Shown in pieces: positions 8,325-51,415 of a stretch of 64,000 nt of DNA (position 1 is its first letter; each line of letters opens with the position of its first letter). Made by a program: the position numbers and the translations under genes. Under the pieces are notes generated by a model. That model was given only the letters and a program-made list of their open reading frames with translations, was not told the origin of the DNA and did not search any database. Source of the stretch: Bryum argenteum (Eukaryota > Streptophyta > Bryopsida > Bryales > Bryaceae); the NCBI GenBank assembly GCA_037043015.1, contig CM073321.1:25681510-25745509 (forward strand), given 5' to 3'.

Positions 8325-8978
8325 TTACAAGTATTGATAAACAGGTTTCCCGTACTTCAAGGCATGTGCAACTTCAAAGTGTATTTGACCAGGCCTATGC
8401 GAGTGCTTCCTATACTCGGGAACAGATCGAAACTTATGTAAGGGATAAATGAAGGGGAGAATATCGGTAACTATATTAGGAATAGTCCTAGTTGACGATG
8501 TTAAATCACCTTGAAAAGGCCAAGGCATGTAGCAAGCAGCATCCGGAGTTCTACGGAGAGAGAGAGGACTAACGTCAACTAGAAAAACTTGGTCAGGGTG
8601 GCACACATCCCGAGATTGGGGCTTACAGTAGAGAGTATTGAGAAGCTTGTAACACCAAGGGTAATTCTGAGGACGTTCACACTGCTCTCTTCCGAAGACG
8701 AATGATAACCTACCAGAAACACCCTCTGGGAGAATGACTTTGAGGAGTGGCTTCAAATCCCTTAGAGGCATTTTCGACCACAAGCCAACATTGAATCGCT
8801 CCAGCAAAACTTGAAACAACTTCTTCAGACCAGGCCTCTTTACAATGTTCCGATGAGCGTCCCAACGGTCAACCGCAACATTAGGATCAATGAAGCACAG
8901 CAATCCCGACACGCAAAGGACAATGCACTTCTTGATGGAATGGGGTCGATCGAAGATGGAATCAATGTGGAGAAGACC
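8325..8978 (-). CDS. Exon 7: second, degenerate FCP1-type HAD domain (element A)
   Basis: Starts after a cttcatgcag acceptor. The motif I position reads IVLCVSGLLCF, so the nucleophile Asp is Cys. RPGLKKLFQVLLERFNVGLWSKM keeps the family scaffold, and motif III is FLVDVSPLSL with the second acidic residue lost. The C-terminal part (LPFIYPLHKF ... EVAHALKYG) aligns with the end of the element C FCP1 domain (LPYLLDLHEF ... FQFGHAMSY). This is a pseudo-phosphatase domain in tandem with a catalytic-looking one. Stop at 8325. Confidence 0.6.
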   Translation of the reverse strand, partial: GLLHIDSIFDRPHSIKKCIVLCVSGLLCFIDPNVAVDRWDAHRNIVKRPGLKKLFQVLLERFNVGLWSKMPLRDLKPLLKVILPEGVSGRLSFVFGREQCERPQNYPWCYKLLNTLYCKPQSRDVCHPDQVFLVDVSPLSLRRTPDAACYMPWPFQGDLTSSTRTIPNIVTDILPFIYPLHKFRSVPEYRKHSHRPGQIHFEVAHALKYGKPVYQYL

Positions 8979-9487
8979 CTGCATGAAGAAAACATGCAAT
9001 ACAAAAACAATTAGGTGTGAGGAATAACAAGACGAGACAGGACTCATATCGGCCGGCAGCCGATATGGAAAGAGGAGGTGAAGTACAAAGAGCAAGAGGG
9101 CCATAAAAAGAATGAGCACAAAGATATTCATATCAAGCAAAACAGAGAGCAAACAAATACTACATGAATCGAATAATAAATGGAGACAACTCAGAGAATC
9201 AAAGAATAAAGTAAAGGCAGCTGAAGAAAAATAATAAAGTCGATTGTCATATACCATGATGAAAAGTTTGTGAACAAAAGGCGGACCTCAAAATGTACAA
9301 TTACTAGAGAAGGCCAACCTGAGTTCAATAAAAAAGTGCTACAGAATATCCAGATGGACGCCTATATATAAATCCTATAAATGTACAGGACTATATACTC
9401 CTATATAAAAACAGAGCAGAAGTATCGGCTGGCAGCCGACAAGAAATCCGAGGCCGATCTCCACGACGTTGCGGAAGACTATGAAGT

Positions 9488-10215
9488 CCTAGCAAGTTTG
9501 GACAACTCCGCGTGCAGAGGATTAGAAGGAAAAATCCTCAACTTCCCATACTCGGAGTTGGCCTGAAAAAACTGAGGAACAGGAAGCAGAAGCTCTTTCA
9601 GCTGATGCAGCAAGGGCTGCAGAATAGTAAGAAGGACTGGCATTGAGGAGGATGACTTCTCCGAATCCTTCGTAAACGTTTCAGGGTGAAAAGCGCTTTA
9701 AGGATTATTGAGGACGTTTTTGTACGGGGAGTCATCAATGAGAAGCATATTCTCCTCAATTGCTCCACGCGCAACTAACTCAGGGCAACACAAAAGAAGG
9801 TGCCTTATGCACTTGAGAAAGACAGGAACACCTGGCCTCTGAGGGTCCTGGAAAGCACTTATCAAGCACTTGGATTGCAAATAAGCAAAAGTGGGATCCG
9901 GAAATGTAGGAACCCTGTCCCGGATATACTCGAGAGGAGATGTCAGGTTTTTCTCCTGAACGGAGGACCAGAAGACCACCTCAAAGTTGTTATCCAAACA
10001 CCAAGGAAGAAGCTCCTTGAGACCAGGCCTAATCCGAGCCTCGGCCTTTAGAACTTTCTGCTGAATGATCTTCCCAGGACGAAAGTGCATAATGGTCCCA
10101 TTGATGTCGAAAAGAAGAAAGTATTTCCGAGGTACCTTAGGTACGGGAGGTACAGATGAAATAGACGCGAGGGGAGCAGACCGCTGCGGAGAGGTCCCCG
10201 CAGATCCATCTTGCT
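9488..10215 (-). CDS. Exon 6: FCP1-type HAD phosphatase domain 1 (element A)
   Basis: KYFLLFDINGTIMHFRP is HAD motif I with the nucleophile Asp kept and the +2 position Asn, as in a plant FCP1-like subgroup with DLNG. IRPGLKELLPW and FEVVFWSSVQEKN follow the FCP1 pattern (RPG..EFL, VWSS), and ENMLLIDDSPYKNVLNNP is motif III with both acidic residues. A TAA at 9698-9700 falls directly after NNP and reading continues SAFHPETF in the same frame, as expected for the family's 'NP(Y)..AIHP' region. FCP1 enzymes remove phosphate from Ser/Thr of the RNA polymerase II tail; the substrate here is unknown. The exon's left end is uncertain. Confidence 0.65.
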
Positions 10216-10534
10216 CTACAATGCGATAATAAGAAATTCAAATACCAACATCAGAACGTAGAGAGTAAAACTAGGTGGACAGAGACATGTCGGCCGGCGG
10301 CCGATACATTGTATGAACAGAACAGAAAACCAGATATATGTACACCAAGCAGTACGCAGAATGAGAATTTCAGTAACTGTATCGGTAGACAACCGACGAA
10401 CTATGGGTGTCGGCTGGCGGCCGATACAATCTGAACTTTTCAGACGGAGCGTATTGCTCGGGAGACTGCGGCTAAATCTAATGTACTCAAGATATGAATA
10501 AAAAGCTAAATCTACACCGACGTCTGGAACAAAC

Positions 10535-11333
10535 CTCCAGTTTGCCGGGTCCGCTTCGGAGAAGCCTGTGCACATCGAATAGGAGACAACTCCTCGTTCG
10601 GCGAGTCCAGCGCAGCCGCATTGGGAGGGAAGAGCTCAGCATTGGGGTCTGAATCGACAATGCGCTTGCGGGCTTGCGAGCGACCACCACTTCCTGCTGC
10701 ATGTGCGGAAGATGTCGGCTGGCAGCCGACAGCTAAACGGCCGGCTGAGGACCGCGAGACCGCACGCTTCCCTTCTTGAAGGCCGGAAGATCGAGTGCTC
10801 CTGGATTGCGAGTTCAGGTCAACAGTGATAACCTCGTCAACAGGCTCGTTCCGCAAGTCCACTTCCATCAATGCTCCTCCCGCATCACGCGGAGCCAGGT
10901 CCCGTTCCGCCGAAGCATCGGTTTCCCGGGCAACCGAATGGTCGACATGGACAGAGTCACCACGGGAGCCGGAACTCGCGGTAGAGGCGCTAAGGTTCTT
11001 CCCCGGCGTGATAGGACATCCAGCCGGCTGCATCGGTGAAGGAGATCAGGTCTCATCGTCCTGTCGGCCGCCGGCCGATACATCGAATCCGGATGCAGCA
11101 GTCGCTTGAGGTGCGGAGTCCAAATCAGCCGCCTCATCCATGTGAACGTCCCCATCATCCTGTCGGCCGCCGGCCGATATGGCTCTTCTCTGCATGCTTG
11201 CGTGGTCAAGGCTACCTTCCGAAGACGAAATAGGGAAAACGACTCGGTCCAGATTCATTCCCCGAACCCGATCCTCCGCCATCCTAACATCCTCTTCAGA
11301 CCGAACGAACTCCAAAACTGGTCTGCCATTCCT
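10535..11333 (-). CDS. Exon 5: end of MTase-like domain and Ser/Asp-rich linker (element A)
   Basis: After a gaaacgcag acceptor the exon reads RNGRPVLEFVRSEEDVRM, the methyltransferase strand with its acidic SAM-contacting residue, then AEDRVRGMNLD. A low-complexity acidic/Ser linker follows. It includes three copies of the element palindrome translated in frame (SAGGRQ twice, AVGCQP once) and an in-frame TGA at 11046-11048. It ends RTRQTG and splits a codon at a gtttgt donor that restores frame with the next exon (TGE-QDGSAG). The in-phase junction supports a single fused protein. Confidence 0.5.
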
Positions 11334-11554
11334 CTGCGTTTCACAAAAAACCGAAAGTTAGAAATGTATCGGCCGGCAGCCGATAAGTACCGACACTCCA
11401 AAAGAGAGGAAAAAAACCAACGGAATGAAATGTATCGGCCAGCAGCCGATAACTCCAGACACTCAAAAAGAAAGGAAAAAAAGCAACGGAATGAAATGTA
11501 TCGGTCGGCAGCCGATACATACAGAAAACCAAACAAAATAGGCGAGAAGCTTAC

Positions 11555-12886
11555 CAATGCAATCTCGGTGATGTTCCCACCACCCCAGATATTGATGAGG
11601 GTCGCCCGCTTCGAGCGGAGAACTGGTTTTAAGAACTTCTCCAGCGTCACGTGATCGACTCCGCAGCAACCACCATTCCAGTCGACAGCTCCTTCCGGGC
11701 ACTCCTGGAACCACTCGATCGGCTTCTGAATCCCAGTGAATTTCTTGAAGACCCTCAAGATGCTGTCGTCTGACTCAGTCTTCGGATAGGTGATCGACAA
11801 CGTGACGAGCGGAGAAGCGTCGAGCTCAAACCTCTTGAAGCCAGTGCGCGCAGAGGGCTTGTAGTCGACGGAATGCGCAGCCCACGTCGCCGTAGCACAG
11901 CGCCAGATGGAAGCGAGTAGATCTCGCTGCTTTGAGGTGCCGATAAAGAACATCGGCACCGGAATGTCCGGCTTAATCGGGGAGACATCCTCATCATCAT
12001 CCTCGAAAAGATCGAACGCGTTGCTCTCAGTGTCGACGGTTGCGGCCTTCACGATAGCAAACAGCTCGGTCCGGCTGACAACAACGGGCTCCCCACAGGG
12101 CGTGTAGCAAAAAAGAACAAAAACCTTGGGGTCCCTTGTGATAACGGCATTGCGGGTTGCGTCCTCGACCATAGCAAGGACGTCGTTGATGGCGTCAGCA
12201 CTCTTGCAGACGTAAGTGAGGCAATCCCTGGTTGACGCCACCCCGCCCGCAACGTGAACGGTGGTGTAAGTCTCCAAAATCTCGGAGAAGATGGCCGGCG
12301 CAATCCCGTTCTTCGACTTATCGGTGGTGGGATTCATGGGATTCACACGACCATTTAGCCACTCGTTCCCTGTCGTGACCTTCTTCAGGTCCGTCCATAT
12401 ATTCCTGACGAGATCCAGTGTCAGGTTCTTCTCGCGGGCTAGCTCGTCCCACATTTCATCAGTGTAAGGGACCCAGTTTGCGTCCTTGCAGGGTAGTGGG
12501 TGGCCCTTCAACTTCCACATGAGCTCATTCATAATTACTCGGTCGAGCTTCTTGTCGCGGCACCAGTCTTGCAGCGTAAGCATCTCCTTCGTCTTGCTGT
12601 TTGACTTGATGCAAACCTTCTTCGCGATAATCTCCTTCGCGAGGCTGATGAGGTAGGAGTCCCGTAGCCCAAGCGTCGGAACGAGATCCGACTTCGTGAT
12701 CTCCGTCAGTGGCAGGCGGGGAACGACACCAGGCTCAGTGCCGTCATCGGCGATCAGCTCTCCGGCCTCCCAGGCGTTGAAAACTTCAATCCAGCTATTC
12801 CACGCCTCCTCACCGGCGAAGACGAGAGGCAGCTTACTCGTTGACTTCTCGGACACGAAGTGCGCCATCACTTGTGCCTTGGCAAG
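11555..12886 (-). CDS. Exon 4: central region and motif I of a beta-class DNA methyltransferase-like domain (element A)
   Basis: The exon starts LAKAQVMAHF after a gctgcag acceptor and is open for about 440 codons. The first half is acidic/Trp-rich with no recognised family. A strand VPMFFIGTSKQRD precedes the end of the exon, which reads RATLINIWGGGNITEIAL before a gtaagc donor. A hydrophobic strand, G-G-G and a helix, then (next exon) RNGRPVLEFVRSEEDV.MAEDRV, match the C-terminal SAM-binding motifs of N4/N6 beta-class DNA methyltransferases, where the order is catalytic motif, target region, motif I. I see no DPPY/SPPW catalytic motif upstream, so activity is doubtful. Confidence 0.55.
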
Positions 12887-13037
12887 CTGCAGCGAACAAG
12901 GGATATAAGAGCAGTAACAGATGAAAACTTACTGTATCGGCCGGCGGCCGATACCAACAAAACTTTAATTAAGACAAGGAAAAAATATCATAGCAAGAAG
13001 GTATCGGCTGCCGGCCGATACCGAGAAGAAGACATAC

Positions 13038-13519
13038 CTCGTACTCCTTGGAGCTCTTTCCGCCTCCACGGTGGGGTAGCGGACGACCAGCTCGGATCCA
13101 TGCCCCACGCCCGAGCTCAGCGCAAGAACGAAAATTCTCCCTCGCAACCTTCTCCGCAATGTTAAGGTTGAGCGCGTTGGAGACGCGAACTAGCTCTCGC
13201 GGATCCTTGTTGTAGACAGGGATGACTTCAAACTCCAGAAGTTTCTTATAAGCATCCGAGTCCTTTGGAAATGTGTCCGCGAGCTCCCGACAAGCTGTGA
13301 CGGTGTGCTGCCCCCCAATGATGTACCAGTGAGTAGATGGGTTCTCCCACCACGGAACTATCTTCCCGTCAGGCATGGTGAACGTGTCGTTCTCCGCGGG
13401 CATGTAGTCCATGACCGCATCTATACCAGATCCGTTGCGAGGGGTTTCCGTTTTAGAGGGATCCCGTGAATCTCAGGCTTCTTCCGGATAGCACCGTAGC
13501 CTTTGTATATGGCCTTCAC
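13038..13519 (-). CDS. Exon 3: ParB/Srx-like domain of the element A fusion protein
   Basis: The exon opens with VKAIYKGYGAIRKKPEI and, after a frameshift near 13435, continues through MDYMPAENDTF to the key motif WYIIGGQHTVTACREL. It then gives a strand EVIPVYNKD and a helix ELVRVSNALNLN, and ends EYE before a gtatgt donor. A strand-G-G-Q-H-T-x-x-A turn followed by 'VIPV' and an 'ALN' helix is the layout of ParB/sulfiredoxin-like and DGQHR-type domains, where the GQHR-like turn lies in the active or NTP-binding site. Element C has WIINGQHSVAASKQML in the same context. The fold assignment is by motif only. Confidence 0.6.
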
Positions 13520-13693
13520 CTGATACAAACAAGGAAGACATCAGAACAGCAGCAGAAATCTGTATCGGCCGGCAGCCGATACAAAAGTGCAGATAGGGAG
13601 TAGCAAAATATCACAGATAATGAAAGAAGAGCACAATGTATCGGCTGGCGGCCGATACAGTAATAAGGAGAGCAAAAAAAATACAAATTGTAC

Positions 13694-14543
13694 CTGACCT
13701 AGACGCTCCTTCGCGATCCTCCCGTCCTTCAGTTCGTCCGGTGCGATGTGCAGCCTCTCCGACGGAATTACCCCTGCAAGCCGCCTTTTCTTGTAAGGGA
13801 ATGAAGCCGTCAAGCCCTTCTCCAACGCCTTGTAGATGGCGTCGATTTTGGCATCACTTGTCTTTGTAGACATGCGATTCCCTCTCTCCAGCGCCTCGTC
13901 CAGATCGAGCTCCAAAACCTTGGATGCTGACTTCTTCTTCGAGCGACTGCTCTCCCCAACCAAGACGGAACGATCCCCGACGCTGACAACCGCGTTGTCA
14001 GCGGCACCCGACTCCTTCCTCTTTCGAGCAGAAGGGACCTTCTTCTTCTGCTTCTCCGCGGCCACCGCAGCAGCATCGAGGTACTTATTCGCCTCGTGCA
14101 TCGCCCCCCTGAGCATCTCTCAGGAATCCATAAACTCCTCCACATTCGTTGGAGATGACGCAGCAAAGAACATCCCTAGCTTCACAGAGGTCTCTCCGCA
14201 GATTGCCTCCGTGCACTTACTCCACGGCAAGGATATGGCGATAATATCTTCCTCCCCTTCTGGTTGGCCGGGGGGCCTAAGGCTGATGAATAGGTCGACA
14301 TTCTCCGGAATATTAACGGCCTTCTCAACCGCCAAGACAGACCCGTGTCCCGGCATGATGTTCCCCTTTATGAGCACGGAGCAGACGATCTCAACCCTCC
14401 CCGTCGGCAGATCCTTCCAGTGGAGGCCCCAAGCATCAATAATCGGAGACGCCAGCCACGCAGGACGAGGAACGATTCCGTCTACTGAAACGTCAGTGAC
14501 GTTGAGGCTGTCCCCGAGAATCTTCTTCAGAAGTCCCGGCTTC
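13694..14543 (-). CDS. Exon 2: N-terminal region of the element A fusion protein
   Basis: The exon begins after a gattcag acceptor and ends ERLGQ before a gtacaa donor. The first part (KPGLLKKILGDSLNVTDV... to VEEFMDS) is a beta-rich globular-looking region of unknown fold. An in-frame TGA at 14120-14122 follows, then reading continues in the same frame with EMLRGAMHEANKYLDAAA, a Lys-rich nuclear-localisation-like stretch (EKQKKKVPSARKRKE) and a helical segment. Element C also has an in-frame stop at the comparable position (49075, TAG). No family recognised for the N-terminal part. Confidence 0.55.
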
Positions 14544-15306
14544 CTGAATCATCGAAGCGCAAGTAAGAGCATGTCGGCCGCCGGCCGATACATACCAGTA
14601 CAGCTGACAAGCAGTTTAGACTACAAGCAGGAAAGTAAACATGCAAGATCGAATAACATATATCGGCTGCCGGCCGATATGCTTATACATATCGGCTGCC
14701 GGCCGATAAGTCATTGCAGTATACAGAGAATTCAATTTCAATACATCTAGCATGTAGAGGCCAATACAATGGCATGTATCGGCTGCCAGCCGATAATACA
14801 CACATATCAGCTGGCGGCCGATACACATAAATAACATGCAGAAGTACAAATAAATGAAAATGCAGCCTAAAGATTGAGCACAAATATCGGAAGGCATATA
14901 CAGAAATAAAAATACATCAAGCATTACAATCAATATAAAGGACGACATCAATGAATCTAGCATAAACCAGGCCAATACGGCATCTATCGGCTGCCAGCCG
15001 ATAAAACACTTGTATCGGCTGCCAGCCGATAACGCAGTTGTATCGGCTGCCAGCCGATAACACAGATCTATCGGCTGGCGGCCGATACACACAGATGTAT
15101 TGGCTGGCGGCCGATAACACAGATGTATCAGCTGGCGGCCGATACACACAAATGAGAGAGATGAATACAGCAGAGAATGGCGCCTAAATACAGAACACAC
15201 ATATCGGACGGCAGCCGATAGAAAGGATTGTATCGGCTGGCAGCCGATAAAACACTTCTATCGGCTGGCGGCCGATACAAATAACTAAGAAGAGCAGAGG
15301 GCTTAC
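14544..15306. repeat. Palindrome array filling intron 1 of the element A fusion gene
   Basis: About 14 palindromes lie in this 763-bp intron, near 14572, 14659, 14690, 14776, 14806, 14985, 15013, 15041, 15069, 15098, 15127, 15202, 15231 and 15258. From 14985 to 15145 six copies follow each other every 28-29 bp. The homologous intron 1 of element C (49445-50768) also holds about 14 palindromes of a different sequence. Apparent proteins translated from this array (YRPAADT, CIGRQPI) are artefacts of the repeat. Confidence 0.85.
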
Positions 15307-15320
15307 CTTGCGGATTCTGC
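15307..15320 (-). CDS. Start micro-exon (MAESA) of the element A fusion gene
   Basis: The minus strand reads ATG GCA GAA TCC GCA AG, then a gtaagc donor. Joined to the exon at 14543 it gives M-A-E-S-A-R-K-P-G in frame, and an in-frame TGA lies two codons upstream of the ATG. Element C has the equivalent 11-nt exon ATGGCAGACAG with its donor at the same relative place (MADS). That conservation is why I choose this start. Confidence 0.6.
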
Positions 15321-15385
15321 CATTGCTCACGAGTTGTATCGGCTGTACTGACGCGGATGTCGGCCGATTAGGGTTTCGCGCACAC

Positions 15386-15505
15386 CACGTATCGGCTGCT
15401 CCACTCCGAGTATCGGCTGCTCCACTCCGAGTATCAGCTGCTACACTCCACGTATCGGCTGCTGCTGCTGCACTCCGCGTCGGCTGGCTGCCAAGCTCCG
15501 TGTTG
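15386..15505. repeat. Minisatellite built from half-palindromes
   Basis: Units of about 22-24 bp of the type 'cgtatcggctgctccactc' repeat four to five times in tandem. Each holds only the left half of the element A palindrome (TATCGGCTG). The array is just upstream of the ATG of the minus-strand fusion gene, in its putative leader. Confidence 0.7.
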
Positions 15506-16280
15506 GCTGCCGTCGGATAGCAAAAACACAAGAGACAAGAATAGAAGAGAAAAGAATTGCGCGGAAAAGAGGGGAGCGGAGAGGTGCGCGGAGGAGGGAG
15601 AGAGGAGTGGACAGGGAAAAGTGCAAATGAGAGAAATGGGGGGGGGGGAAGGGGGTATTACCCCCTCCCTCTTGAAATGACGGGTCGCGTCGCTTTCCAT
15701 GAGGCGGCGCGCCTGCCCGCGACCGTGCCCGTCTGCCCGCGCCGCCGCCTCTTTCGCCCGAATCTTTGCCCGCGAAAAGATTCGGCTGCCCGCCGCCAAA
15801 ACGTCACGAATCAATGCTTGCTCCTCCCCCGCTTTCCATTCAAATTTTTGATTTCTTGATTTTGAAATCTTCTTGATTTTTGAAATTTTCTTGATTTGGG
15901 CGCCATTTCCTGAGTAGAGTAGGCCTAGGGTACCCATTCACTCCCATTTTTCACATTTCTCTCTCCCTCTCTCCCTCTCTCTCCTCATGTTGTCCTGTCC
16001 CCTCGCTCTCCTCTTCATGCTGTCCTGTTGCCTCGCCCTCCTAGACATGCTAATTTCTCTGTTTTAGATATTTCAACATTGTCTTTGCGTCGAATATTCG
16101 AGAATATGCACAGATTAATTTTGGATCCCCAAGCTGTAGCTTTTACAACAATGCCGGCCGATATCGTGCTCTCATCAGCCGATATAATTTAGGTCATAAT
16201 CACCAGAATCCTAGGCCTTTGTCTGACCAGCCGATATAATTTTCTGTCCAGCCGATTTAATTTCCTTGATCTATTGTATC
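15506..16280. promoter_or_regulatory. Divergent intergenic region of element A
   Basis: This region separates the two divergent genes. It holds a poly-G run (about 15639-15655), a TTTGGCGG-type E2F-like site on the minus strand near 15795 (plus strand ccgccaaaa), CTCTC-rich DNA near 15957-16000 and several single half-sites 'cagccgatata' near 16150-16260. Comparable E2F-like sites occur in the divergent regions of elements B and C. Promoter assignment is inference from position. Confidence 0.45.
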
Positions 16281-16297
16281 ATTTTGCCGGGCCCGTC

Positions 16298-16420
16298 TGA
16301 TGTTCTTGATCCCCAAACCCAGTCGTGGAAGTTGTATCGGCTGCCGGCCCGATCTGATGTTCTCGATCCCCAAACCCAGTCGTGGAAGTTTGAAGTCGGG
16401 CCCCGGCCCGATCTGGTGTC
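16298..16420. repeat. Tandem duplication of about 60 bp
   Basis: The block 'tctgatgttcttgatcccca ... gtcgtggaagtt' occurs twice in direct orientation, each followed by a palindrome-like core ending ggcccgatct. It shows local slippage or unequal exchange at the transposase 5' region. Confidence 0.7.
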
Positions 16421-16441
16421 GGCGATCCAAAGCGTCGGCTC

Positions 16442-16662
16442 AACTCTTATCTGTATCGGCTGCCAGCCGATACTACTTTTCTACCCTCTCTTTCCGTAGC
16501 CGTATCGGTTGCCGGCCGATACTTTTGTTTTACCTTTGCTGTGGTCTGCTCTTCGCGGTAGAACAGTCCAGTACTTGTAGCTGTGTCGGCTGCCGGCCGA
16601 TACTATTTTAGGCAATCCACATTCTAGCACTTCTAACTGTATCGGCTGCCGGCCGATACTCT
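16442..16662. repeat. Palindrome cluster upstream of the element A transposase
   Basis: Four palindromes near 16452, 16501, 16585 and 16639 precede the first transposase ATG at 16700, in the leader or a 5' intron. The arrangement mirrors the palindrome clusters upstream of the transposases of elements B and C. Confidence 0.8.
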
Positions 16663-16699
16663 CCTACTTTCGGACTAGGATAACCTGAAGATCACGGAA

Positions 16700-19600
16700 A
16701 TGAAGCATCTGCTGCCATCAGTTTTGGAAACTGAACCGATTGACTCTTTCACTAGGAATGGTGGGTCGGGTAGATGGATGCTAGCTAAGGACGTCGTTGT
16801 CGCGTTAACCCACGCCTGGATCAGATTACGCGGTCGCTACCGCTGCTCAAGAAGAATGCGCGTCGTGACCCCTCCCTGCTAGAGGTCCTTGTTCTGGATG
16901 TAGCAAGTATTATCGAGATGATTATACCATTTCCCACGGACGATTTGAAGCTTCTTAGTCAGTGTGTTGGTAAGAGAATCGTCTGGGAGGAGCGATATGT
17001 GAGGCCTCTAATTGATGAATTAGATTCTGTTCCAAAACCTATCGGCTGGCGGCCGATACCCGAAAGTATAGAAGAGAAGCCCATCGAAGAGTTCCTTACT
17101 CTTACCGTAAACATGGAGGTTGCGCTTTTGCACGTCGATCAGTCTGCACAGTACTGCGCTGGAGTTGGACTGATAGTCGAGTGCTCCCTGAAAGGAACAT
17201 GGGAGGGGTTCCGTGTCCCGCAGAGCTTCTTTGTCGTTGTTCAGCTTCTGAAGATATGTAAGGACTTTGTAGGAGTTACTGCTTACTGTGAGTAGCCAGC
17301 TTTCACTACCCTAGGTGACTGTCTTGGGCACAACATCCTCTGGAGTGGATACAAGGTCCGACCTGTTCAACTGATGACTGCTCCTGTCACACCTATCGGC
17401 TGCCAGCCGATACCCCCTGCTTTGAAGAAGGTCAAGGTCGAGGATCACGCTGCTGAGCTTTCCGACTCCCCGCCCTCTACCAATTTTTGTGGCAGTTCCG
17501 GCCACCCGTTTCCTCAGCAGGGTTTTTCGGAGCGCAGCGATGATGGTGGGTCCTCCACCAATTCTCATGTGGGGAATCAGGATCCTCCTCTCCCTACATG
17601 TCCCGACGTCAACCACAACGACCATGTACTACCCCAAAGACGCTCTCCTTGCTTTGACGTTGGATTGGAAGGACGTGGAGCGTCGGAGGATGTTGGTACA
17701 CATCCCCACCGTCTAATGCCAGTGATGTCGACGCAGGTCTTGAATCGGGTCTTCCTTGTCTTGACCGACCGCTTTGGAGAAACAAGTGCTGTGACTTGTT
17801 GAATGAAGATCTATCCTTCTTCGGTAGGGCAATGATTCAGGTCTGCCTTCCAAACGAAGCATGCGATGAGAATGTTCCTGGAGATACTGATGTTGGTGTC
17901 ATGTTTTTGTCGGACGACGCTGCCCTACAACTGACTATACTACGTTGGCCCTTATCGCGGACGAGGCTTGACTGCGGCCGACTTTTCTCTAATATTGTTA
18001 TTTCCTGCTCAGCTGCTAGGCAGAAGGAGACCCTTGACTGCCCTCGTCTCCAAGGCGTCCCTCGAAACCCTTACAGGTCTGTGTGTCGAAAGATCCTATC
18101 CAAGGATCCAAAGGCGGGGTCCAAATCCAAACTTAAAACCTCCGACGACGAGGTTCGAAAGGTTAGTTCTCAGAAATGCTGCAAGGATAGATGTTGTCAA
18201 ACGTTCCCGTGGGAGTCCACGAGAACCCTCCGACGCAAATTCTATGCTTGCTCTTTTGAAGCCAGAAGGGAGATCGCTTATGCAGTCCAGAAGCAGCTTA
18301 ATGTTCGCACCCCCGGTGGCAGGAGGTTCATTACTCTCGAATGCGTGGATGTCTGCGAGAATGCCTGGTACATCATTCACGGTGTCTCCCGGTCTGCGTA
18401 CCACGTCTACAAAGCAGCCGCTATCTCAGGGTCCGTTAGCGGTTCTCATGGTAATGCAGGAACGCTTCGACCGCGGCCGCGAACCATTCAAGCTCGTGCG
18501 ACATTGAAGAAGATCATTGACGAGAACGCTGACCAGATGCCGAATGAGTTCAAACTCGTCGGGAACAAGCGTGTCGATAACCTCAAAGTTGTCCCTTCCA
18601 CGATGAGCTGAGACTACATGCGCGGCCAAGTCAACGATGTAAGCTACAACATTCTCACTTTCCTTCTCCCTGTTTCTTCGTCATTTCCCGAATTTCGTTC
18701 CTGGAGTCAACAATGTGTGTGCATTATGCATTCTGTGTATGTGTGTGCATTCTGTGTATCGGCCGCCGGCCGATACACTCAGTATTCAGTACTACATGGG
18801 TTCTCGAACTTGTCATCCTCTTTGCCTATCGGCTGCCGGCCGATATGTTATCCTTCCCCCTGTTCTAACTGTATTTTCGCATCATGATCTGTAGGTTAAT
18901 TTTGAAGTGTAACATGGCGCCTGTCTCTCAGTCCACGATTAGTCAGCTCCGGAAATCTCACTTTAAGAATGTGGACATCAAGGCCGTTGGATCTAGCTTC
19001 TCCAAGTGCACCGAGTGTGACTTTCTTGTTGAATGCATAGCCAAATATCCAAGAGGTTGCGATGAGTGGTAGTCACTTGTCGACGACAGGGAGCGTCATC
19101 TTAATTATCAACGTGCTTGCCGGAATATCTACGCAGGTTGGAGTACGCAGTCTGTTCAGAATCCATCTGAGTTCTTGTGCATTATTCACGACAAGATGGA
19201 CACGACGAAGACCGCCATTCCGAGGATGCGAGAGGATCACGAAGGCTACCGCAGGCCTTGGTCAGATACCCATTTCGGTCACGGGGATGCTAACTCACGG
19301 CCACGGTGACGGTGCCTATACGCACTATTCTACTGCTCTTTGGCCAGGTGATTCTAATTTTACTATATCCTCGCTCTGTCGGGTCCTCCGCGCCCTCGAG
19401 CGACCGCCTGTTCGCGACTCGAAGGTGCTCTTTCCGACACCCCCATGAGAATAGCTTCTTCGAGGCGCTGCTCCATGGCAAATCGAGATGTTTCTCTTCG
19501 ATTCCGCCCTCCACCGTGGTCGCCATGGACCCACCACTCCCTGGTCGCCCTGCGGTTCCTCTTCCTAGGAAGCTTTTCTTACAGCTTGATAACTCTGCCA

Positions 19601-21990: not shown

Positions 21991-22511
21991 AGTCTTCTTT
22001 GTTACTAATTTTGTATTGATTTGTTATACTATCAATGCTTTTAAATAATTATGTGTGTGTTTAAGGTGTATTTATCTTTGTATTAATCTTTGTATTTTTA
22101 ATTCTTGCCCATATCATTTTAAATTCTTAAATATATTGCTTATATTGTTTGAAGTTCCTTCTTTGGAATTCATTTTAGCCAATATTTCTTGCCTTTTTAG
22201 TTTTTTTAAAGGTATTTTTAGAGATTAAATGTCCATAATTCGTCAAAATGTCCATAATTAGTTAAATATCCTTTTGAGGAAAGAATCAAATACTTTTAAC
22301 TAATCAAACCATAGGTAACTTTATCATACAATGGAAGAGAAGTCATTCGTTGCAAGGTAGTATCAAAACAAGAATGTACTTCAAGTACCTACATTTAAAA
22401 GGCATGTAATAAATATGATTCCAAAAATTTGGCTACATTTACATTAGGACTTTGATAAACAATTTAATAAGCTAATAAAGCCGAGAGAGGTACAACACAA
22501 CATGTGCATTG
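21990..22511. other. AT-rich non-coding flank
   Basis: T-rich DNA without palindromes or recognisable coding similarity, between element A and the next remnant. Confidence 0.5.
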
Positions 22512-26756: not shown

Positions 26757-26759
26757 TTC

Positions 26760-27340: not shown

Positions 27341-27349
27341 CTACTCCTC

Positions 27350-34205: not shown

Positions 34206-34207
34206 CA

Positions 34208-39540: not shown

Positions 39541-39541
39541 T

Positions 39542-42680: not shown

Positions 42681-42990
42681 GGACCGTGTACTCGTAGAAT
42701 AGCTAACCCCATATTCGTTATATTGGGAAATATGCATGACTTTGGGAGATTTAAGAGAAGAAAATCATCTAAAATATCGATCAATGTTAAGCATAAAGTA
42801 CTAGATCTTGCATCAAACATGATATGATTATATGCAAATAGAGACATCGCTCTGAACAAAGGATGGGAATAAAAGAATATTCCATTTAATCGCTTGTAAA
42901 TATCAATCATAATTCACAAAATATGTCATACAAGAGTGATGACTATCAAATTCTGTACATAATTACTTCTGATGCTACTAGATGTAACTA

Positions 42991-43749
42991 CTACGGAGTT
43001 CCACCATAAGCGACAATACGAGATTGGATGAATGCTCGTTGACGTCGACGTGTCCAGCTAGAATCATTGTCTTTCATCAATGGACTATCAAGAAGGCGTT
43101 GCAGCCTTCCGCGACGCCGGTCCTCAATGCTTGACTTAGGTAGCGAGTGGCGGCGGTTTTCTGACGAAGGCTTCATTGCTCCTTGTTCAGTGGACTTCGA
43201 AGGACATGCTTTTGGAGTCTCCAAAACACGATCCTGAACAAAATAAAACAACAACATTTCTTAAAAGTAAACAAGCGAATGGATACATACGAGCAATAGG
43301 TAGCACATAAGTCCAATGTCTAAGAATTGTTAAATGAATTAGATTGTACAGCAGAAAATCTAGAAATTGTTAATCGTTCTTGCAAACAGTTAACTTAAAG
43401 CCTAAAATGGATGCTCTCAAGGGATGAAGAAACAAACCTTCAGAAAAACTTCTTCAGATATATCCAAGCCAATGTCGTATAACATACGCTTTGTAGGCGT
43501 ACATGTAATTTGAAGAGGAGAACCAATATGATTTACCGTTGGAGGCGACACGGGGGAAGCGGATTGCACATTCGGAGGTGATGTCTTAGTGACAGGGCTG
43601 TTTACTACTCCATCTTCTACCGCCATTGTCGAAAAATCCATGGTAGATTGAGCCGTTTCAGCAGACTGGAATAATCGTCCTCTACTCCGAAGTGAAGGCC
43701 CGAAACCCGCAGCATTCATCAAAGAATCCACAGAAGCACGGCAATCACC
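42991..43749 (-). CDS. C-terminal exons of the element C fusion gene
   Basis: Exon 43438-43749 (acceptor ttacgcag; DCRASVDSLMNAAGFG ... DIGLDISEEVFLK) joins in frame through gtttgt / gttcag to exon 42991-43233 (DRVLETPKACPSKS ... RIVAYGGTP, stop TAG at 42991). The sequence is Ser/Pro/Arg-rich and probably disordered. No domain recognised, and no equivalent is visible in element A. Confidence 0.5.
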
Positions 43750-43997
43750 CTGCGTAATCTATTCCAACAATATGCCAAACAAATCATCAATTATCCAGAG
43801 TACATAAAGTTCATGCAAGACATAACTTTAAGCAAAACTAAAGAAAACTCTCATATTCATATTCACAAAATGAAAATTTACTAACATATGAAAAGTCCTA
43901 CAAATCTACTGTCTAGAAGAGCTTCACACTCTAAGTTACGATTAAAATTAAACCAAAGGGAACAGAACTACACGAGAATAGAAAACGAAATATTTTG

Positions 43998-44820
43998 TCA
44001 TTCTATTAAGGCATTTTGTATTTCATTGTACAGATCTAATGATGCACGATCATCATACGACATGGCATGTCCAAATTGAAACGATGCTCGAAACTTGCTA
44101 AGGGGACCGTCAAACTCATGGAGATCTAACAGATACGGCAAAACCTCATCTAACAAAATAGAGTCCTCGTGTGCCCTATTGTCCTTGTGAGACCAAGATG
44201 GTAGTAAAAGAACATATTCCCGCTGATTAAGCACGTGCTTAACCGGACTATCATCTATGATGAGCGTATTAGCTTCTGTATAAAAACCATCAAAGCTATT
44301 GAAGAGATGAGCTTACAAAGGTCTTAAGGAAGATAGACTTTTGAGTTCCGGGTTCCTTCATGAACAATGGTCGGCACCCACCAGATTTCAAGGGAATCAT
44401 GTCACAGTCTTCTTGACCAAGTATTTGTAGTGGCCTTATAGGGTTTATAGGACCGAACAGAAAATCACAAATGGCTTCTGTGGTTGTTCTCATCATCGAA
44501 CTCCAAACCGTAATGGTAGCAAACGATGCCACTCGAGAGAGGAAGTCCTTACACTTGGGCCTCACCCATACAAGCTTCTTACCCACCTCTGTTGGCAACG
44601 TGGCCGAGTGAATACGGAAGTCACGATTTCTGTATCCTTTAGCTTCCCAAAATGGGGAACAACTGCAGAGGATACCATTGAGGTCGAGAACAACATTTAA
44701 CCAAGTACCGGAGGATTTCCTTGGAACATGACCTATGTCTTCTCTAGAAATTAAATCATTGACCGATGCTTCGTTGAAAACGGCGCACCACGACAAAATT
44801 ACTGGGGAGCTTTCGTCACT
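43998..44820 (-). CDS. FCP1-type HAD phosphatase domain (element C)
   Basis: After a cgcaccag acceptor the exon reads SPVILSWCAVFNEASVND, then LNVVLDLNGILCSCSPFW (HAD motif I, nucleophile Asp present, DLNG as in the plant FCP1-like subgroup). VRPKCKDFLSRVASFATI and VWSSMMRTTTEAICDFLFG fit the FCP1 scaffold, and NTLIIDDSPVKHVLNQRE is motif III. The two halves are split by only 41 bp with gtaagc / acag borders (44276-44316), too short for a normal plant intron and out of phase by one, so a partly deleted intron or indel is likely. The C-terminus YLLDLHEF...FQFGHAMSY matches element A domain 2. Confidence 0.65.
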
Positions 44821-44904
44821 GGTGCGATGAATTCAAGGTCAGAAACATAAAATACATCGCAACGATGGCATGGGTGAGAGCAGTGTTTGTGGAACAGAAA
44901 ATAC

Positions 44905-45131
44905 CTGATTGGCATAATTGCTCTCCTCTAAGTCAACTTGGACACCCATTGACCCGAGTGACTGCTCAGTGCAATCTATCTCATCACAGACAGCAACAAC
45001 ATTCTCAGTATGTGAGACATCATGCATTTGAAGTGTGTCCTCCACCGGTGGAACCCGCTCATGGCGATAAAATTCAAGCGTGACATCATCCATGACTGGA
45101 ACATCGATTGCTTCCTCATCCAAAATAACAT
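44905..45131 (-). CDS. Acidic linker exon (element C)
   Basis: Starts VILDEEAIDVPVMDDV after a gctgccag acceptor and ends SNYANQ before gtattt. It is acidic, without a recognised domain, and joins the MTase/linker part to the FCP1 domain, as the Ser/Asp-rich linker does in element A. Confidence 0.5.
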
Positions 45132-45388
45132 CTGGCAGCGCAATACAAATTCATGGAATCAGGGAACAATACGATGGAGGAAATATAATATGGGAGCCAA
45201 CAAGAAGCAGATAGGAAAAAGGGCAACAGTTTAGCTCGAGTCGAGCTAAACTGCAAAATAGTAAAGGCCTGTATTAATTACAAAAAATGTCTCAGAGTTT
45301 GATACAAAATTTCACATGTACATGTGTTTTCCGGCATTTACAGCTTAAATACTATACACTAGATCCAAAATCTAAGTTGAAGGAGGAC

Positions 45389-46188
45389 CTGTAGATTCTT
45401 CTTCCGCGTCTCCCTTAGGATGTAATTTAGGCGTAGGAGAGGAAGGCGTAGGCACGGAAGGCTCGGTAGTTGGAGGCGGCAGGGACGTGAGTGGTTGCAG
45501 AGAAGTAGGATCAGCATGTGGTGCAGTAGTGGTTGCCATTGTCCGCACCAAAGTTAATGCGTTGCCGCCAGTAAAATTCTGCATTATCTCCATCATCATG
45601 TCATGGCGTTCATGGTCTCTCTTTTCGCGTTCCAGCTGCGCAATTTGCTGCTGTGCAAGGAGCTCTTCCAACTTCCTCCGCTGTGCCGTCTCCTCCTCAA
45701 TTCTGCGTTGTAGTGCTGCCAACTCGTTACTCTCCTCAGCCTTAAATCTACTTGAGGGTGAGTCCTTCGACATGGGATTACGTTTCCGCTTTGCACTCCC
45801 TCTGCCTCCTCCTCGCCCGGGAGCGGTACGCGACTCCTGCGGTGTCTGAGGGGTCGTGTCAATTTCCATGTCTTGCTCTTCGTCATCTCCACCGGAACCA
45901 AGGCTGTAAGTGCTGCCTTCGCCGTGAAGTTGCCTTCCGCTTGATCCAGAGTCCTCCCGGTCGGGGACGTCCGCCTCATCGTCGAGGGCCTCGTCATCCA
46001 AAGACGCAACAGCTTTGCGCTTGCCTTTCAAGAGCATGGCGCCAACCTCCGGGAACTCGACTTTGTCAAAGAAATACCTGTTCACGGAGAAGTCAGTGGG
46101 ATCTAGAGTAAGCCCTTTGTCGTACGCGTGGTCGATGTCCTCTCTGTCTTCGGCATCGAATATAGCGTAGGCATCGAGAGACAACATC
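45389..46188 (-). CDS. End of MTase-like domain and charged linker (element C)
   Basis: The exon opens LSLDAYAIFDAEDREDIDHA after the acceptor; with the previous exon's AGGKAVCASM this forms the methyltransferase motif I helix and the following strand with acidic residues. A low-complexity acidic region, a basic NLS-like stretch (GGGRGSAKRKRNPMSK), a coiled coil (ALQRRIEEETAQRRKLEELL) and a Pro/Thr-rich tail follow. If not spliced at 45389 the frame stops at 45372 (GPPST, TAG). Confidence 0.55.
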
Positions 46189-46376
46189 TACAAGAATAAC
46201 AGTGGAGCTTAAAAAACGGAAATCATCTGTAATCAAAGCGGACATGATTTGGAAACAAGCTTGACAGTTTAGCTTGAGTCGAGCTAAACAACCTTACAGT
46301 TTAGCTCGACTCGAGCTAAACTGTAGGGATTCCTATGTGAGCGAGGAGAATCGAGCTTAACTACAGCGAAGCTTAC

Positions 46377-47729
46377 CATGCTTGCGCAGACTGCTTTTCC
46401 GCCGGCGTAGACAAGAAAAATGTTCTCCTGCTCCTGACAAAAAAGCTGGATGACCTGCAAATAAAAATCCATCCTTAACTCGATCGGGTACATGTGATAC
46501 CGGGACTCGTTGTACTTCCGCGGCTTCTCGTAAAGCGCGTGCTTTGGAGCGCGATACTCGGCCTGTGGGATACGCGCGAGTTTCACGTTTCCCCTGATCA
46601 TGAAGTGAAGACGCATAGGCTCTGAGGCTTGCTTCGCTTTCGCGTTGTATCCAGTGAGCCGTTTGTGCGAGGACAGATAGTACATCGACGGGATTAGCTT
46701 ATAATTCGACCCTGGGAAGAATGCAGGATTTGTCGTGAACGCCTCAACTTGCGCGTATTCACTCTCACCTCCGCAAATAAATAACCAACAGGGAACATCT
46801 GTTAGAGCTGGCTTGTTCTGGGACGATAAGATCGCCATGAACATTTTGAAGAATGGGTGGTCAGGCGAGGAATCAGCTGAGGAACTACAACTACCCGGAA
46901 CCAATCTGAAGTCGATGATTCCGACGTTCATCTCGGGTGCAGGTTCTGGCTATTTGTTCTCAGGCCAATCTTTCAGCCTCTGTGGTGTTTTGCGCTCAAA
47001 GGAACGGAATATAAGAGTACCAACAGGACCAGTAAACTTTTCGCGCTTTTCCAGAAACACCTCAAAGAACCTCTTTGCGTAGGGAGAGAGATCTTCGCAG
47101 CTGGTATTCCTGTGCTGGGTTTGCCTCTGATCTGCGTAGTACTTATCAGGAATCCCCCATTTCAAAAGTGCGTGCTTTGAGGCCTTCGTGACGTGGTAGT
47201 CTTTCTTGAATTTCTTCCACGCATCCACGTCGAACTCTTTGTTCTTGAAGATTCCGAGTTAGGGCCTGATCTTGTGGATCTGAAGCTGGGCGGTCGCCTT
47301 ACGCTTCAACCGTTCAACGTACTCCTTTATGGAGTAGCAATCTTCTAGAAGGGTTACTGGTTGTTTGAAAGTAACCTTTGGGTATTCCAGTTTCCGTGAC
47401 GGACCTGACCTATTCAACATATGTGAACAGAGTTTTCTATGGTCCGACTCTGATAGGTTACCGAGGTTCTTTAAAAATTCCCTCGACAAGGTTTGATCGT
47501 TGTCTGGTTTGAACCCTGGCTTGTCACAGAGCTGCCTCAAGGAGTAGGGGTCGATAAGGGTCTCCTGGGCGACACTTACGATTAACTCAGCCCATAGGTC
47601 CCAGAGATCATCAGGGAAGGTGATGATCTTTAGCTCATTCGTGAGGGACAAGACCTTGTTCTTCACCTCTACTTGGGCCTTGGCGACATCAATCATGGCG
47701 AACCTATGTCGAATGGAGTCCACGAATTT
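46377..47729 (-). CDS. DNA methyltransferase-like exon (element C)
   Basis: Starts KFVDSIRHRFAMIDVAKAQV after a gcattgcag acceptor (element A has LAKAQV at the same place). In-frame stops are at 47259 (TAA) and 46950 (TAG). After the second stop it reads MNVGIIDFRLVPGSC where a beta-class MTase would have the IADPPY catalytic motif, then PCWLFICGGESEYAQVEAF, and near the end IELRMDFYLQVIQLFCQE and ENIFLVYAGGKAVCASM, which fits 'KP.eLy..li..f...g..VlD.faGsGt'. The SAM-binding half looks kept and the catalytic tetrapeptide appears lost. Confidence 0.55.
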
Positions 47730-48012
47730 CTGCAATGCCACAAGTAATGTAAGATGTTAGAGTGTATGAGAGCGGTAACTTTAGCTCGAGTCCAGCTCGA
47801 GTGTGCATCCGGAATTCAGCAGTTGTAAAGATGTTGGGTTTAATAAGCAGCAGCGACAGTTTAGCTCGAGTCGGGCTAAACTACAATGACAGTTTAGCTC
47901 GACTCGAGCTAAACTGCAATGACAGTTTAGCTCGACTCGAGCTAAACTGCTACGGGGATCAATTTTCTATGATAGAAGGTAGAGATGTGATGCAACATGA
48001 GGTAATACTTAC

Positions 48013-49444
48013 GTCAAAATTTGCAAATTGTGACAGAACTCGCTTTGTTTGCACACGCTTATCCGCCACCCCAACTGCTGCATGTCTATTTGCTGGGCGC
48101 CCGTAGTTCTCCTACACAGTGCGGGCGGCAAGGATGTTCGATGCCCATGTCGGCTTAAATGGAGTGAAGTGGTTCACTCTGTTATAAAACGCCGATATCT
48201 TGCGGAGCTTTGCTTCATCCTTTGTCCAAACTACGAAAGCTGACCAGACCCAGAAGTCTTTGCGAATTGTTTCTGGGACTTTGGATTCAAGCATCTGCTT
48301 CGAGGCGGCAACACTGTGTTGGCCGTTGATGATCCAAAACTCGCAGTCCTGCATATCTTCCAGGCCGTTGGGCTTCACATCCAATTTTGGCATGACGCAG
48401 AGCGTTTGCTTCTGGGACCTGTCGGGCATATTGATGAGAAAATTCATCAAGTCGGTCTTGCCCTTCTTCTTGAATTCCCGAATGGTCCATTGGGGAGGGG
48501 ACTCGATCATCCTCATCGTGTCGACCTCTATCTTCGTGTCAGGTTTAGGAAAGACAAAACAGTCCTGACAGTCCGTAAAGAACTTCTGGTAGATGAGGTT
48601 GACGTTCTCGAAGTCGACTTCCTCCACGGTATTAACGTTCTTCGGAATGCATTGAATAGCATCGTTCAAAGCCGTTAAAGCATCCTCTTTGGGGATGAGC
48701 ATGCTCTTTTTCTTCTTCGCCTCGGCTGACTTCTTCAAGGGAGCTTCTCTCCTCATTACAGGCGAGTCAGTAGTCGTGGTGGTTGTTGGAGTAGGCCTTG
48801 TAGCACGTTGCGGGCGTGTTGGGGTCCTACTCTGTACGCCGCTCCCCGTTGCAGTCAGCCCAGAACCCTCCAGTGGAGCTTTCCCTTTCAGGTGTATAGT
48901 CTTCGCCATAATGACAGCGTGCGTCAGAGCAGAGACTACAGATCGCACTTTGATCGCGAGCTGCTTGGCCTTCAGATCTCCCCCCTGTTTCATTTGCCAT
49001 GCTTTAGTAAGCATATCCTGTTTCAATGTGGATTTAATTTCGTCGAAACTGGACGGCTCTAAACTCTCCACTAACTAGCCCAAGTCAAAACCAGTCTGCT
49101 TGATATCGATCATTATGGTGTAGTTGTAAGCTTGCTCCTTGTCCTTCTCCTTGAAGGTTGTTAATGTAGCAATGATTTCCTTTTCCGTTTTGTGGTCGAA
49201 GTCTGTGAGCTTGGAGTCTATGTCGATGGAAATTGGGTCTTCTACATTTCCTTCGTAGGTCACGACGAGGGTAAGGAATGCAGTATACGGAATCCATCTC
49301 GCAGACCAGGATACAACTTTGGATGGATCCTTGAATTCCCAGCAGTCCAGCTGCTTCGTGTCGTCGCCATCGTCCTCGTCAATATGCGATGGCCTAAGTT
49401 TGAAGAAGTGTTGAAGCGTCTCTTGAACTCTTGCCTTCTCCTGA
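48013..49444 (-). CDS. N-terminal region and ParB/Srx-like domain (element C)
   Basis: From acceptor cttcacag it reads SQEKARVQETLQHFFKLRPS, a globular part, TAG at 49075, then a helical block (EIKSTLKQDMLTKAWQMK), a Thr/Pro/Lys-rich linker with KKSAEAKKKKS, and EEVDFENVNLIYQKFFTD. The core motif is CEFWIINGQHSVAASKQML, followed by FVVWTKDEAKLRKISAFYN. These correspond to GGQHTVTA and PVYNKDPRELVRVSNALN of element A. A TAG at 48112 interrupts ...ILAARTV-stop-ENYGRP, and the exon closes FANFD before gtaagt. Confidence 0.6.
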
Positions 49445-50768
49445 CTGTGAAGGGGGAGTGTGTTAGTTGATGGTTTGGATATCCATGAAGCTTAGATTAT
49501 CCTTCCTAGTACTACTTGCAGTTTAGCTCGAGTCGAGCTAAACTCCAGCTTTCGCGGTTTGAGCAAATTAAATCGACTGAGCTGAACTGCACGATTTAAG
49601 CTACCACAGTATCTATACTTTGTATTTTAAGTCATTTTAACAAAGCTTTAACCTTCAACGTGTATCTGCGTCGTAACTAAGTATTTGTTGATAACTTGTT
49701 TGTCAACTAACGTAACATCTACAGTTTAGCTCGAGTCGAGCTAAACTGTAGACACATGTGTCGACTACGGTTTAGCTCGAGTCGAACTAAACTGTAGACG
49801 GGTCTTTGTAGTCTTTGTTGCTTGCTTAGGCAAGTTTCGTGTGGATTAGAATGTAATGTGATTTTGGTAAGCTTAATTCTTCGCCCTTAACCGTGAACTG
49901 CGTCAAAATAGAAGGTTTCATTTTAATATGGGCAGTAGTTTAGCTCGACTCGAGCTAAACTGTCAAGGCTCGTCCCAGCTACAGTTTAGCTCGACTTGAG
50001 CTAAACTGTCAAGGGCCGTGCCAGCTACACTTTAGCTCGACTCGAGCTAAACTGTAGTAGACAAATGCCTGTACAATTTAGCATGACTCGAGCTAAACTG
50101 TAGCTGACTGAATCTATGTAGGCTTTATTGTTTTATTAGTGGTCTTTTGTTAATTTGAGTAAGTACATTTTGGTATGTCAGACCTTATACCCTGAACCAT
50201 GGACTGCGTCGTAAACTAGACTTCGTGTGAACAATTGCAGCAGTTTAGCTCGACTCGAGCTAAACTGTAGAGGCTGGTGCCACCTACAGTTTAGCTCGAG
50301 TCGAGCTAAATTGTTGACGGATTTTTGTTTGCTTTATTGTTTTATTAGTGGTCTTTTGTTAATTTTAGTATAACTACATTTTGGTAAGTCATACCTTATA
50401 CCCTAAACCATGAACTGCTTCGTAAATTAGACTTAGTTTTAAGAATTGCAGCACTTTAGCTCGAGTCGAGCTAAACTGTAGAGGCTGGTGCCAGCTACAG
50501 TTTAGCTCGAGTCGAGCTAAACTGTAGAGTAACGTGCCAACTACAGTTTAGCTCGACTCGAGCTAAACTGTAGTTAACAGATGTATCCGCAGTTTAGCTC
50601 GAGTCGAGCTAAACTGTAGAGGCAGTTGTCCACTACAGTTTAGCTCGACTCGAGCTAAACTGTAGCCGCTTCCATGCAGGGGCATATTACTCTAAGGGCT
50701 GCATACTTTAGAGGGGACCCAACTATTTGCATGTGAGTTAGTGGATTTTTGTTGATGATGATTATCAC
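49445..50768. repeat. Palindrome array filling intron 1 of the element C fusion gene
   Basis: By hand count 14 palindromes lie near 49519, 49722, 49767, 49935, 49980, 50028, 50078, 50240, 50285, 50453, 50496, 50543, 50590 and 50636, many extended to CAG..CTG flanks. Longer units also repeat: 'gcctttattgttttattagtggtc' with its surroundings occurs twice (about 50120 and 50330), each with the same palindromes, so the array grew by segmental duplication. Confidence 0.88.
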
Positions 50769-50779
50769 CTGTCTGCCAT
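50769..50779 (-). CDS. Start micro-exon (MADS) of the element C fusion gene
   Basis: ATGGCAGACAG followed by a gtgata donor. Spliced to 49444 it gives M-A-D-S-Q-E-K in frame. It is the counterpart of MAESA in element A at 15307-15320. An upstream acceptor-like gtgcag near 50840 suggests a further 5' untranslated exon. Confidence 0.55.
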
Positions 50780-51389: not shown

Positions 51390-51415
51390 CACTCCTGGTG
51401 GTGCCCTTCCGTCAT

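What the first reader, a model, noticed from the sequence alone, without database searches (positions are those of the whole stretch)
8325..50779. A ParB-like / DNA methyltransferase-like / FCP1-phosphatase fusion gene carried by two diverged transposons
Elements A (8325-15320) and C (42991-50779) both carry, on the minus strand, a gene with GGQHT/NGQHS (ParB/Srx-like), a strand-AGG/GGG-helix-acid layout of beta-class N4/N6 methyltransferases, a low-complexity linker and an FCP1-type HAD domain (DINGT/DLNG ... IDDSP). Splice phases join the parts. ParB-MTase pairs are common in phage and bacterial genomes; joining them to a eukaryotic FCP1-type phosphatase inside a transposon is a combination I do not know. 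The shared order in two copies with little sequence identity argues for past selection on the whole gene.
Basis: partly seen in the sequence, partly recalled or inferred. Interest (0 to 1): 0.95.

Follow-up and report, generated by a model that had tools for sequence, protein, structure and literature searches.

The report
Transposons with a ParB-fold gene
Large DNA transposons in what looks like a plant genome carry, beside a presumed transposase, a gene whose protein has a bacterial ParB-type fold and an FCP1-type phosphatase-like domain, and different transposon lineages are dotted with different palindromes, which suggests that the protein recognises its own transposon.

The parts
8136..22274 (.). 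Element A, TIR transposon, TSD TGAG at 8132-8135 and 22275-22278
   Evidence: 21-nt exact inverted match; shared boundary in copies; TSD read by eye
8136..8162 (+). Left terminal inverted repeat of A
   Evidence: 275 genomic hits of the 21-nt core at <=1 mismatch, 0 for reversed control
22248..22274 (-). Right terminal inverted repeat of A
15309..15323 (-). Possible first exon of the A accessory gene (ATG, then GT donor)
   Evidence: read by eye
13694..14543 (-). A accessory gene, N-terminal exon (e1+e2), with an in-frame stop found only in this copy of 14
13038..13519 (-). A accessory gene, GQH exon, ParB/Srx-like; frame change in this copy
   Evidence: fold from relatives
11555..12886 (-). 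A accessory gene, middle and methyltransferase-like exon (WGGGN)
   Evidence: homology to MTases not significant
10535..11333 (-). A accessory gene, next exon and low-complexity tail
9481..10215 (-). A FCP1-type HAD domain (DINGT...IDDSP)
   Evidence: Pfam NIF E 5.3e-6; acceptor AG in 8 of 10 copies
8325..8978 (-). A second, degenerate HAD-like exon
   Evidence: purifying selection in relatives; HAD assignment by eye
16789..20902 (+). A divergent DUF7869 gene, presumed transposase
   Evidence: PF25273 E 6.2e-36 in ORF 19294-20070
8185..21760 (.). A palindromes TATCGGCYGSCRGCCGATA, 39-49 depending on stringency
42705..59075 (.). Element C, decayed TIR transposon, TSD AGCT at 42701-42704 and 59076-59079
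   Evidence: 29-bp 93% inverted repeat; ends printed
48115..48684 (-). C GQH region (ParB/Srx-like)
   Evidence: a row of the alignment used for the fold
46287..47756 (-). C middle and methyltransferase-like region (AGG), two in-frame stops
45375..46187 (-). C low-complexity tail exon
43998..44832 (-). C FCP1-type HAD exons (DLNG...IDDSP)
   Evidence: Pfam NIF E 2.5e-8 and 0.014 (below cut-off) for two exons
57593..58789 (+). C DUF7869-type gene, truncated
   Evidence: tblastn to A's gene, E 1.9e-18 and 5e-9
45230..57552 (.). C palindromes TTAGCTCGASTCGAGCTAA, 23-25 sites depending on stringency

Best explanation
These are large TIR transposons with 4-bp TSDs and a DUF7869 presumed transposase. 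They carry a second gene whose product joins a ParB/Srx-fold domain, an uncharacterised middle and MTase-like part, and (most likely by splicing) an FCP1-type HAD. Shown here: the transposon anatomy, the ParB/Srx fold (by prediction), purifying selection on the domains compared, and a private palindrome type in each of four protein lineages. Inferred: the ParB-fold protein, probably as a dimer, binds its own lineage's palindromes, accumulates on the element and keeps it transcribed or mobile against host silencing, as VANC does for VANDAL. The HAD is then probably a non-catalytic recruiting part, because the second motif-I Asp is Asn in A and C.
For: Fold. Palindromes co-segregate with protein lineage: A type 7-40 per locus in 23 of 23 A-lineage loci, D type 14-21 in 3 of 3, C type 24 in window C, and no cross-occurrence of the A, C and D types at <=2 mismatches. 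Exact E palindromes lie within 3 kb of 13 of 19 E-lineage hits, 0 of 22 D, 0 of 56 A; within 10 kb 14, 1 and 0, chance expectation 0.165. Mainly non-coding: 5 of 45 A sites in coding sequence as assigned by eye (58% of the element, P 1e-10), 0 of 25 C sites (36%). MITEs keep the sites: 9 in 5 MITEs, shuffled 0.023 each. Six of 68 metagenome homologues, at 48-68% identity to the nearest copy here, show translated A-type palindromes, shuffled mean 0.02. Published VANC motifs sit in introns and upstream regions as repeats that differ between families (PMC5735166, passages).
Against: No binding, expression or methylation data. The palindromes could serve the transposase: the DUF7869 gene at 27.6-30.0 kb has C palindromes beside it, with no GQH exon found at 31-42 kb. 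On C1 up to 3.28 Mb only 2 of 10 C-type FCP hits have a listed exact C palindrome within 20 kb. 5 of 19 E-lineage hits lack a listed exact E palindrome within 10 kb, and 1 of 22 D hits has one within 10 kb. The arginine of DGQHR/GERR-type motifs (recalled) is T or S here, so nucleotide binding is uncertain.
Confidence: 0.42

Rival explanations
1. The palindromes are binding sites of the DUF7869 transposase (internal sites for synapsis or titration), and the ParB-fold gene does something else.
For: Five of 5 MITEs looked at, about 330 bp each, keep one or two palindrome-like sites inside the ends; a DUF7869 gene at 27.6-30.0 kb lies beside C palindromes without a GQH exon found; DUF7869 genes in the window differ from each other as well (29-39% in tblastn).
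Against: In A most sites lie away from the ends, in introns of the accessory gene and 5' of both genes; about 40 sites per element is many for a transposase (inference).
Confidence: 0.3
2. The palindromes work as hairpins in RNA or DNA, or are short parasitic palindromes that spread inside introns by conversion, with no cognate protein.
For: They are perfect or near-perfect inverted repeats, largely intronic and often arrayed.
Against: Core sequence, not only pairing, is shared (core identity 0.83-0.94 against flanks 0.26-0.46; the core figure is inflated because sites were picked at <=3 mismatches); the sequence is lineage-specific; three of four types share an odd 9+1+9 geometry, nearly always with C or G at the centre.
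Confidence: 0.15
3. The minus-strand region is two genes, a ParB-fold gene ending at the conserved TAG and an FCP1-type gene, not one fusion.
For: TAG conserved in 10 of 10 A-type copies; acceptor AG lost in 2 of 10.
Against: Only about 275 bp lie between the ORFs, and the FCP frame of A has no Met before the HAD motif; a phase-fitting donor is kept in 10 of 10 copies (by eye).
Confidence: 0.25
4. The protein is an active N4/N6 DNA methyltransferase with a ParB-type recognition domain that marks its own element.
For: HHalign puts the WGGGN/FSGSK motif on motif I of N6_N4 MTases (P 0.04 against 0.67 for a reversed control); a phage protein named DNA methylase is the second-best viral fold match of the GQH domain.
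Against: No Pfam, NCBIfam or PHROGs MTase match; hmmsearch no better than shuffles; no PPY/PPF motif seen by eye.
Confidence: 0.08

Closest known systems
VANDAL21 with VANC21, and VANC6 (Arabidopsis; PMC5735166, passages read)
   Same: Transposon-encoded accessory factor; family-specific short motifs in introns and upstream regions, often as repeats; motif type changes with the protein
   Different: VANDALs are Mutator-like and VANC has no known link to ParB (both recalled); VANC motifs were shown to be bound, here binding is inferred; here the sites are long palindromes
Fungal TET/JBP-carrying DNA transposons (PMC12730594, passages read)
   Same: DNA transposons with a captured epigenetic-type gene thought to counter silencing
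   Different: Different captured domain, hosts and transposases
Bacterial ParB, Noc, KorB, PadC and eukaryotic sulfiredoxin
   Different: Sequence similarity limited to the motif; GQHT/S in place of GERR or GCHR (motifs recalled); no partition function implied
Phage proteins with a ParB-fold domain named DNA methylase (BFVD A0A0F6WDY6, Mycobacterium phage Vincenzo)
   Same: ParB-fold match inside a protein named DNA methylase
   Different: MTase part not established here; no HAD known there; domain order of that phage protein was not examined
Sola transposons (PMC10741241, passages read)
   Same: TIRs, 4-bp TSD, reported in a moss, can exceed 15 kb
   Different: No Sola transposase was compared with DUF7869

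Membership tests
ParB/Srx-fold domain | Predicted structure matches ParB/Srx structures | tested here: met
ParB/Srx-fold domain | Match to Pfam ParB_N (PF02195) | tested here: not met
   0 matches in the genome; no Pfam hit for the exons
ParB/Srx-fold domain | Nucleotide binding and dimer clamp | not testable with these tools
   Needs protein work
N6/N4 DNA methyltransferase | Profile match | tested here: not met
N6/N4 DNA methyltransferase | Profile-profile match with motif I in register | tested here: inconclusive
   HHalign P 0.04, probability 1.3%; reversed control P 0.67, unrelated control P 0.96
N6/N4 DNA methyltransferase | [DNS]PP[YFW] catalytic motif (recalled) | tested here: inconclusive
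   Not seen by eye in A, C and L029, but the alignment to MTases is itself uncertain
FCP1/NIF HAD | Pfam NIF above cut-off | tested here: met
   A 26.6 bits, C 34.2 bits, cut-off 21.8
FCP1/NIF HAD | Catalytic DxDxT (recalled) | tested here: not met
   DINGT in A, DLNGI in C
TIR DNA transposon | TIRs, TSD, dispersed copies, MITEs | tested here: met
   4-bp TSD in 9 of 12 insertions including window A; 275 TIR hits against 0
Sola superfamily | 4-bp TSD | tested here: met
   definition from PMC10741241
Sola superfamily | Sola DDD transposase | not tested
   No Sola sequence or profile was compared
VANC-like anti-silencing system | Family-specific motifs in introns and upstream regions | tested here: met
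   exceptions
VANC-like anti-silencing system | Protein binds motifs and lowers methylation | not testable with these tools
   Needs DAP-seq and bisulfite data

The most novel reading that the evidence does not exclude
A eukaryotic transposon group has captured a ParB-type sliding-clamp or coating system together with its cognate palindromes: the ParB-fold protein loads at lineage-specific palindromes, coats its own element and recruits a pseudo-phosphatase to keep it transcribed. Four protein-palindrome pairs were seen within one genome.
Probability: 0.3. Interest if true: 0.93.

Novelty: new variant of a known kind. Interest (0 to 1): 0.8.

Why it matters
If right, a bacterial chromosome-partition fold has been turned into a self-recognition factor of eukaryotic (plant-like) transposons. 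It would be a second, unrelated solution to the problem VANC solves, with at least four protein-palindrome pairs in one genome on which recognition and its evolution can be tested directly. It would also account for the long palindromes that occur thousands of times here (9185 sites of the C type at <=1 mismatch).

Tried and rejected
Full-length AF2 model of L029's protein: pLDDT 38.5, not used. P0001 residues 250-900 against the 5.8-billion protein set: 0 of 7129 candidates at E <= 0.001. PDB sequence searches of P0001, the A FCP exon and the GQH profile gave nothing credible. MTase test with HMMER: no signal above shuffles. The L057 query was hoped to be a ParB-MTase fusion but is LAGLIDADG-MTase; its hits served only as an MTase set. 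E. coli YbdM did not match the GQH profile (E 0.22). The palindrome variant seen near L019 is not an arrayed type in the rows listed (137 sites at <=1 mismatch). Literature: nine searches. Searches found no paper with all their terms. One search gave 4 papers, seen in the listing only, none by title on this subject. One search gave one review, PMC10741241, passages read. One search gave 14 (8 listed), of which PMC5735166 and PMC12730594 were read in passages. So 'not in print' rests on these searches of an open-licence library only. The organism was not identified: plant-type TTTAGGG repeats and 258.8 Mb in 25 contigs are all that was seen; 'moss-like' in notes is a guess.
Full report
WHAT IS THERE. 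Copies of element A share a sharp edge at window 8136. A 21-nt exact inverted match lies at 8142-8162 and 22248-22268. The left terminus reads AACGGGTATTTAACTAATTATGGAC, and TGAG flanks both ends. Across 12 insertions whose two ends were seen (window A, six other large copies, five ~330-bp MITEs), 9 have an exact 4-bp duplication, read by eye; the misses are C9, C1d and L040. Nine or more of 12 by chance would have P about 5e-20 at 1 in 256 each. The TIR core occurs 275 times at <=1 mismatch, its reversed control 0 times. Element C has a 29-bp inverted repeat at 93%, and its printed ends read AGCT-AACCCC...GGGGTT-AGCT, hence 42705-59075 with TSD AGCT.

GENES. A has a plus-strand gene with Pfam DUF7869 (E 6.2e-36), the presumed transposase. 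C has a truncated relative of it, and another DUF7869 gene lies at 27.6-30.0 kb (E 1e-27). DUF7869 gives 1811 first-look candidates in the genome, 150 scored, and rings in none of 14 control genomes. The minus-strand accessory gene of A has exons e1/e2, GQH, MT-like, tail, FCP1-type HAD and a second HAD-like exon with a degenerate motif. NIF hits A and C above its cut-off. Of 21 A-lineage loci of 8-10 kb (L009-L028, L032), an FCP match was found in 17 and an FCP2 match in 15 (my count). L009, L011, L019 and L022 show no FCP; in some the copy is interrupted or the stretch ends. For D and E lineages the stretches did not settle it.

INTEGRITY. The window copies are broken. C needs four in-frame stops read through. 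A carries stops that are private or rare (1 of 14, 3 of 12, 2 of 10 readable copies) and a frame change in the GQH exon relative to other copies. Long open frames exist elsewhere (996 aa in L029, 933 aa in L030; by eye these run through an intron). Between L010/L013 and L023-L028, pN is 0.18-0.43 and pS 0.67-0.87 (near saturation) for e1, e2, GQH, MT, FCP and FCP2. That is purifying selection in relatives of the window copy; the tail gave no alignment.

PALINDROMES. The new finding. A carries TATCGGCYGSCRGCCGATA and C carries TTAGCTCGASTCGAGCTAA. Neither occurs in the other element at <=2 mismatches; the only other place in the window is beside the DUF7869 gene at 30.4-31.0 kb, where C palindromes lie. 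The D lineage (L029, L050, L053; 77-88% alike) carries TATCCCCGGSCCGGGGATA, and the E lineage (L030, L031; 72-83% alike) carries a CATCGGKCGATCGMCCGATG-like palindrome. The first three are odd, 9+1+9, with C or G at the centre, apart from one A-centred site in the 24-42 kb stretch. In 28 long loci plus window parts there is no cross-occurrence of the A, C and D types; the E type was not counted in that table. Exact E palindromes (58 sites in the genome, 50 listed; control 0) lie within 3 kb of 13 of 19 E-lineage hits, 0 of 22 D and 0 of 56 A hits typed in; within 10 kb it is 14, 1 and 0, and random places give 0.165. The lineage of a hit was assigned from the stretch matched, a proxy. D palindromes (689 exact, control 0) lie within 3 kb of 3 of 3 D hits and 0 of 6 A hits in C1:0-5.39 Mb. 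C palindromes number 9185 at <=1 mismatch, control 0. In A, 5 of 45 sites lie in coding sequence as I assigned it by eye, 58% of the element (P 1e-10); in C, 0 of 25. Core identity is 0.83-0.94 and flank identity 0.26-0.46. The core value is inflated by selection at <=3 mismatches, but A's flanks are at chance, so its sites are not mere tandem copies. Five MITEs keep 9 palindrome-like sites inside their ends. Six of 68 metagenome homologues, 48-68% identical to the nearest copy here, show the A palindrome in translation, shuffled mean 0.02.

AGAINST. On C1 up to 3.28 Mb only 2 of 10 C-type FCP hits have a listed exact C palindrome within 20 kb, and only 2 of 11 palindrome clusters have a listed FCP hit. 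The FCP list holds 150 scored of 837 candidates and the palindrome list is cut after 100 rows, yet some of these FCP frames look intact. Partial elements, one-mismatch sites or another palindrome must be invoked; this is unresolved.

HOW IT MAY WORK. VANC proteins bind short motifs that form repeats in introns and upstream regions of their own VANDALs, and a related VANC uses different motifs (PMC5735166, passages). The anatomy here is alike with another protein fold. I therefore favour a self-recognition and anti-silencing role for the ParB-fold protein (0.42). The main rival is that the transposase reads the palindromes (0.30). Binding, effect on methylation, and any role of the HAD are inference.

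Noticed in passing
window 27605-30048 (-) and 30430-31024: A third DUF7869 gene beside C-type palindromes, with no GQH exon detected in 31-42 kb.
   Followed up: partly
window 21762-21944 and 56677-56738: Telomere-type TTTAGGG runs inside elements A and C.
   Followed up: no
L054 and L072 (G000:C4:20498241-20500293); also C7:9878472: A gene in the same genome with an N6_N4_Mtase Pfam match above cut-off (E 3.5e-6) and, by eye, a DTPF motif; not matched by the element's MT-like profile.
   Followed up: partly
L039-L042, L047: About 330-bp MITEs with the A TIR and palindrome-like sites inside the ends.
   Followed up: yes
G000 contig C1 (44.1 Mb): Many accessory-gene hits lie on this one contig, which might be a sex chromosome or other repeat-rich chromosome; not tested.
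   Followed up: no
L030, residues 788-827 of P0002: Weak PHROG 32908 (unknown function) match, E 4.6e-4.
   Followed up: no
window 56736-56874: Four repeats at 32-bp spacing of TCCCGCCAATT type upstream of C's DUF7869-type gene.
   Followed up: no
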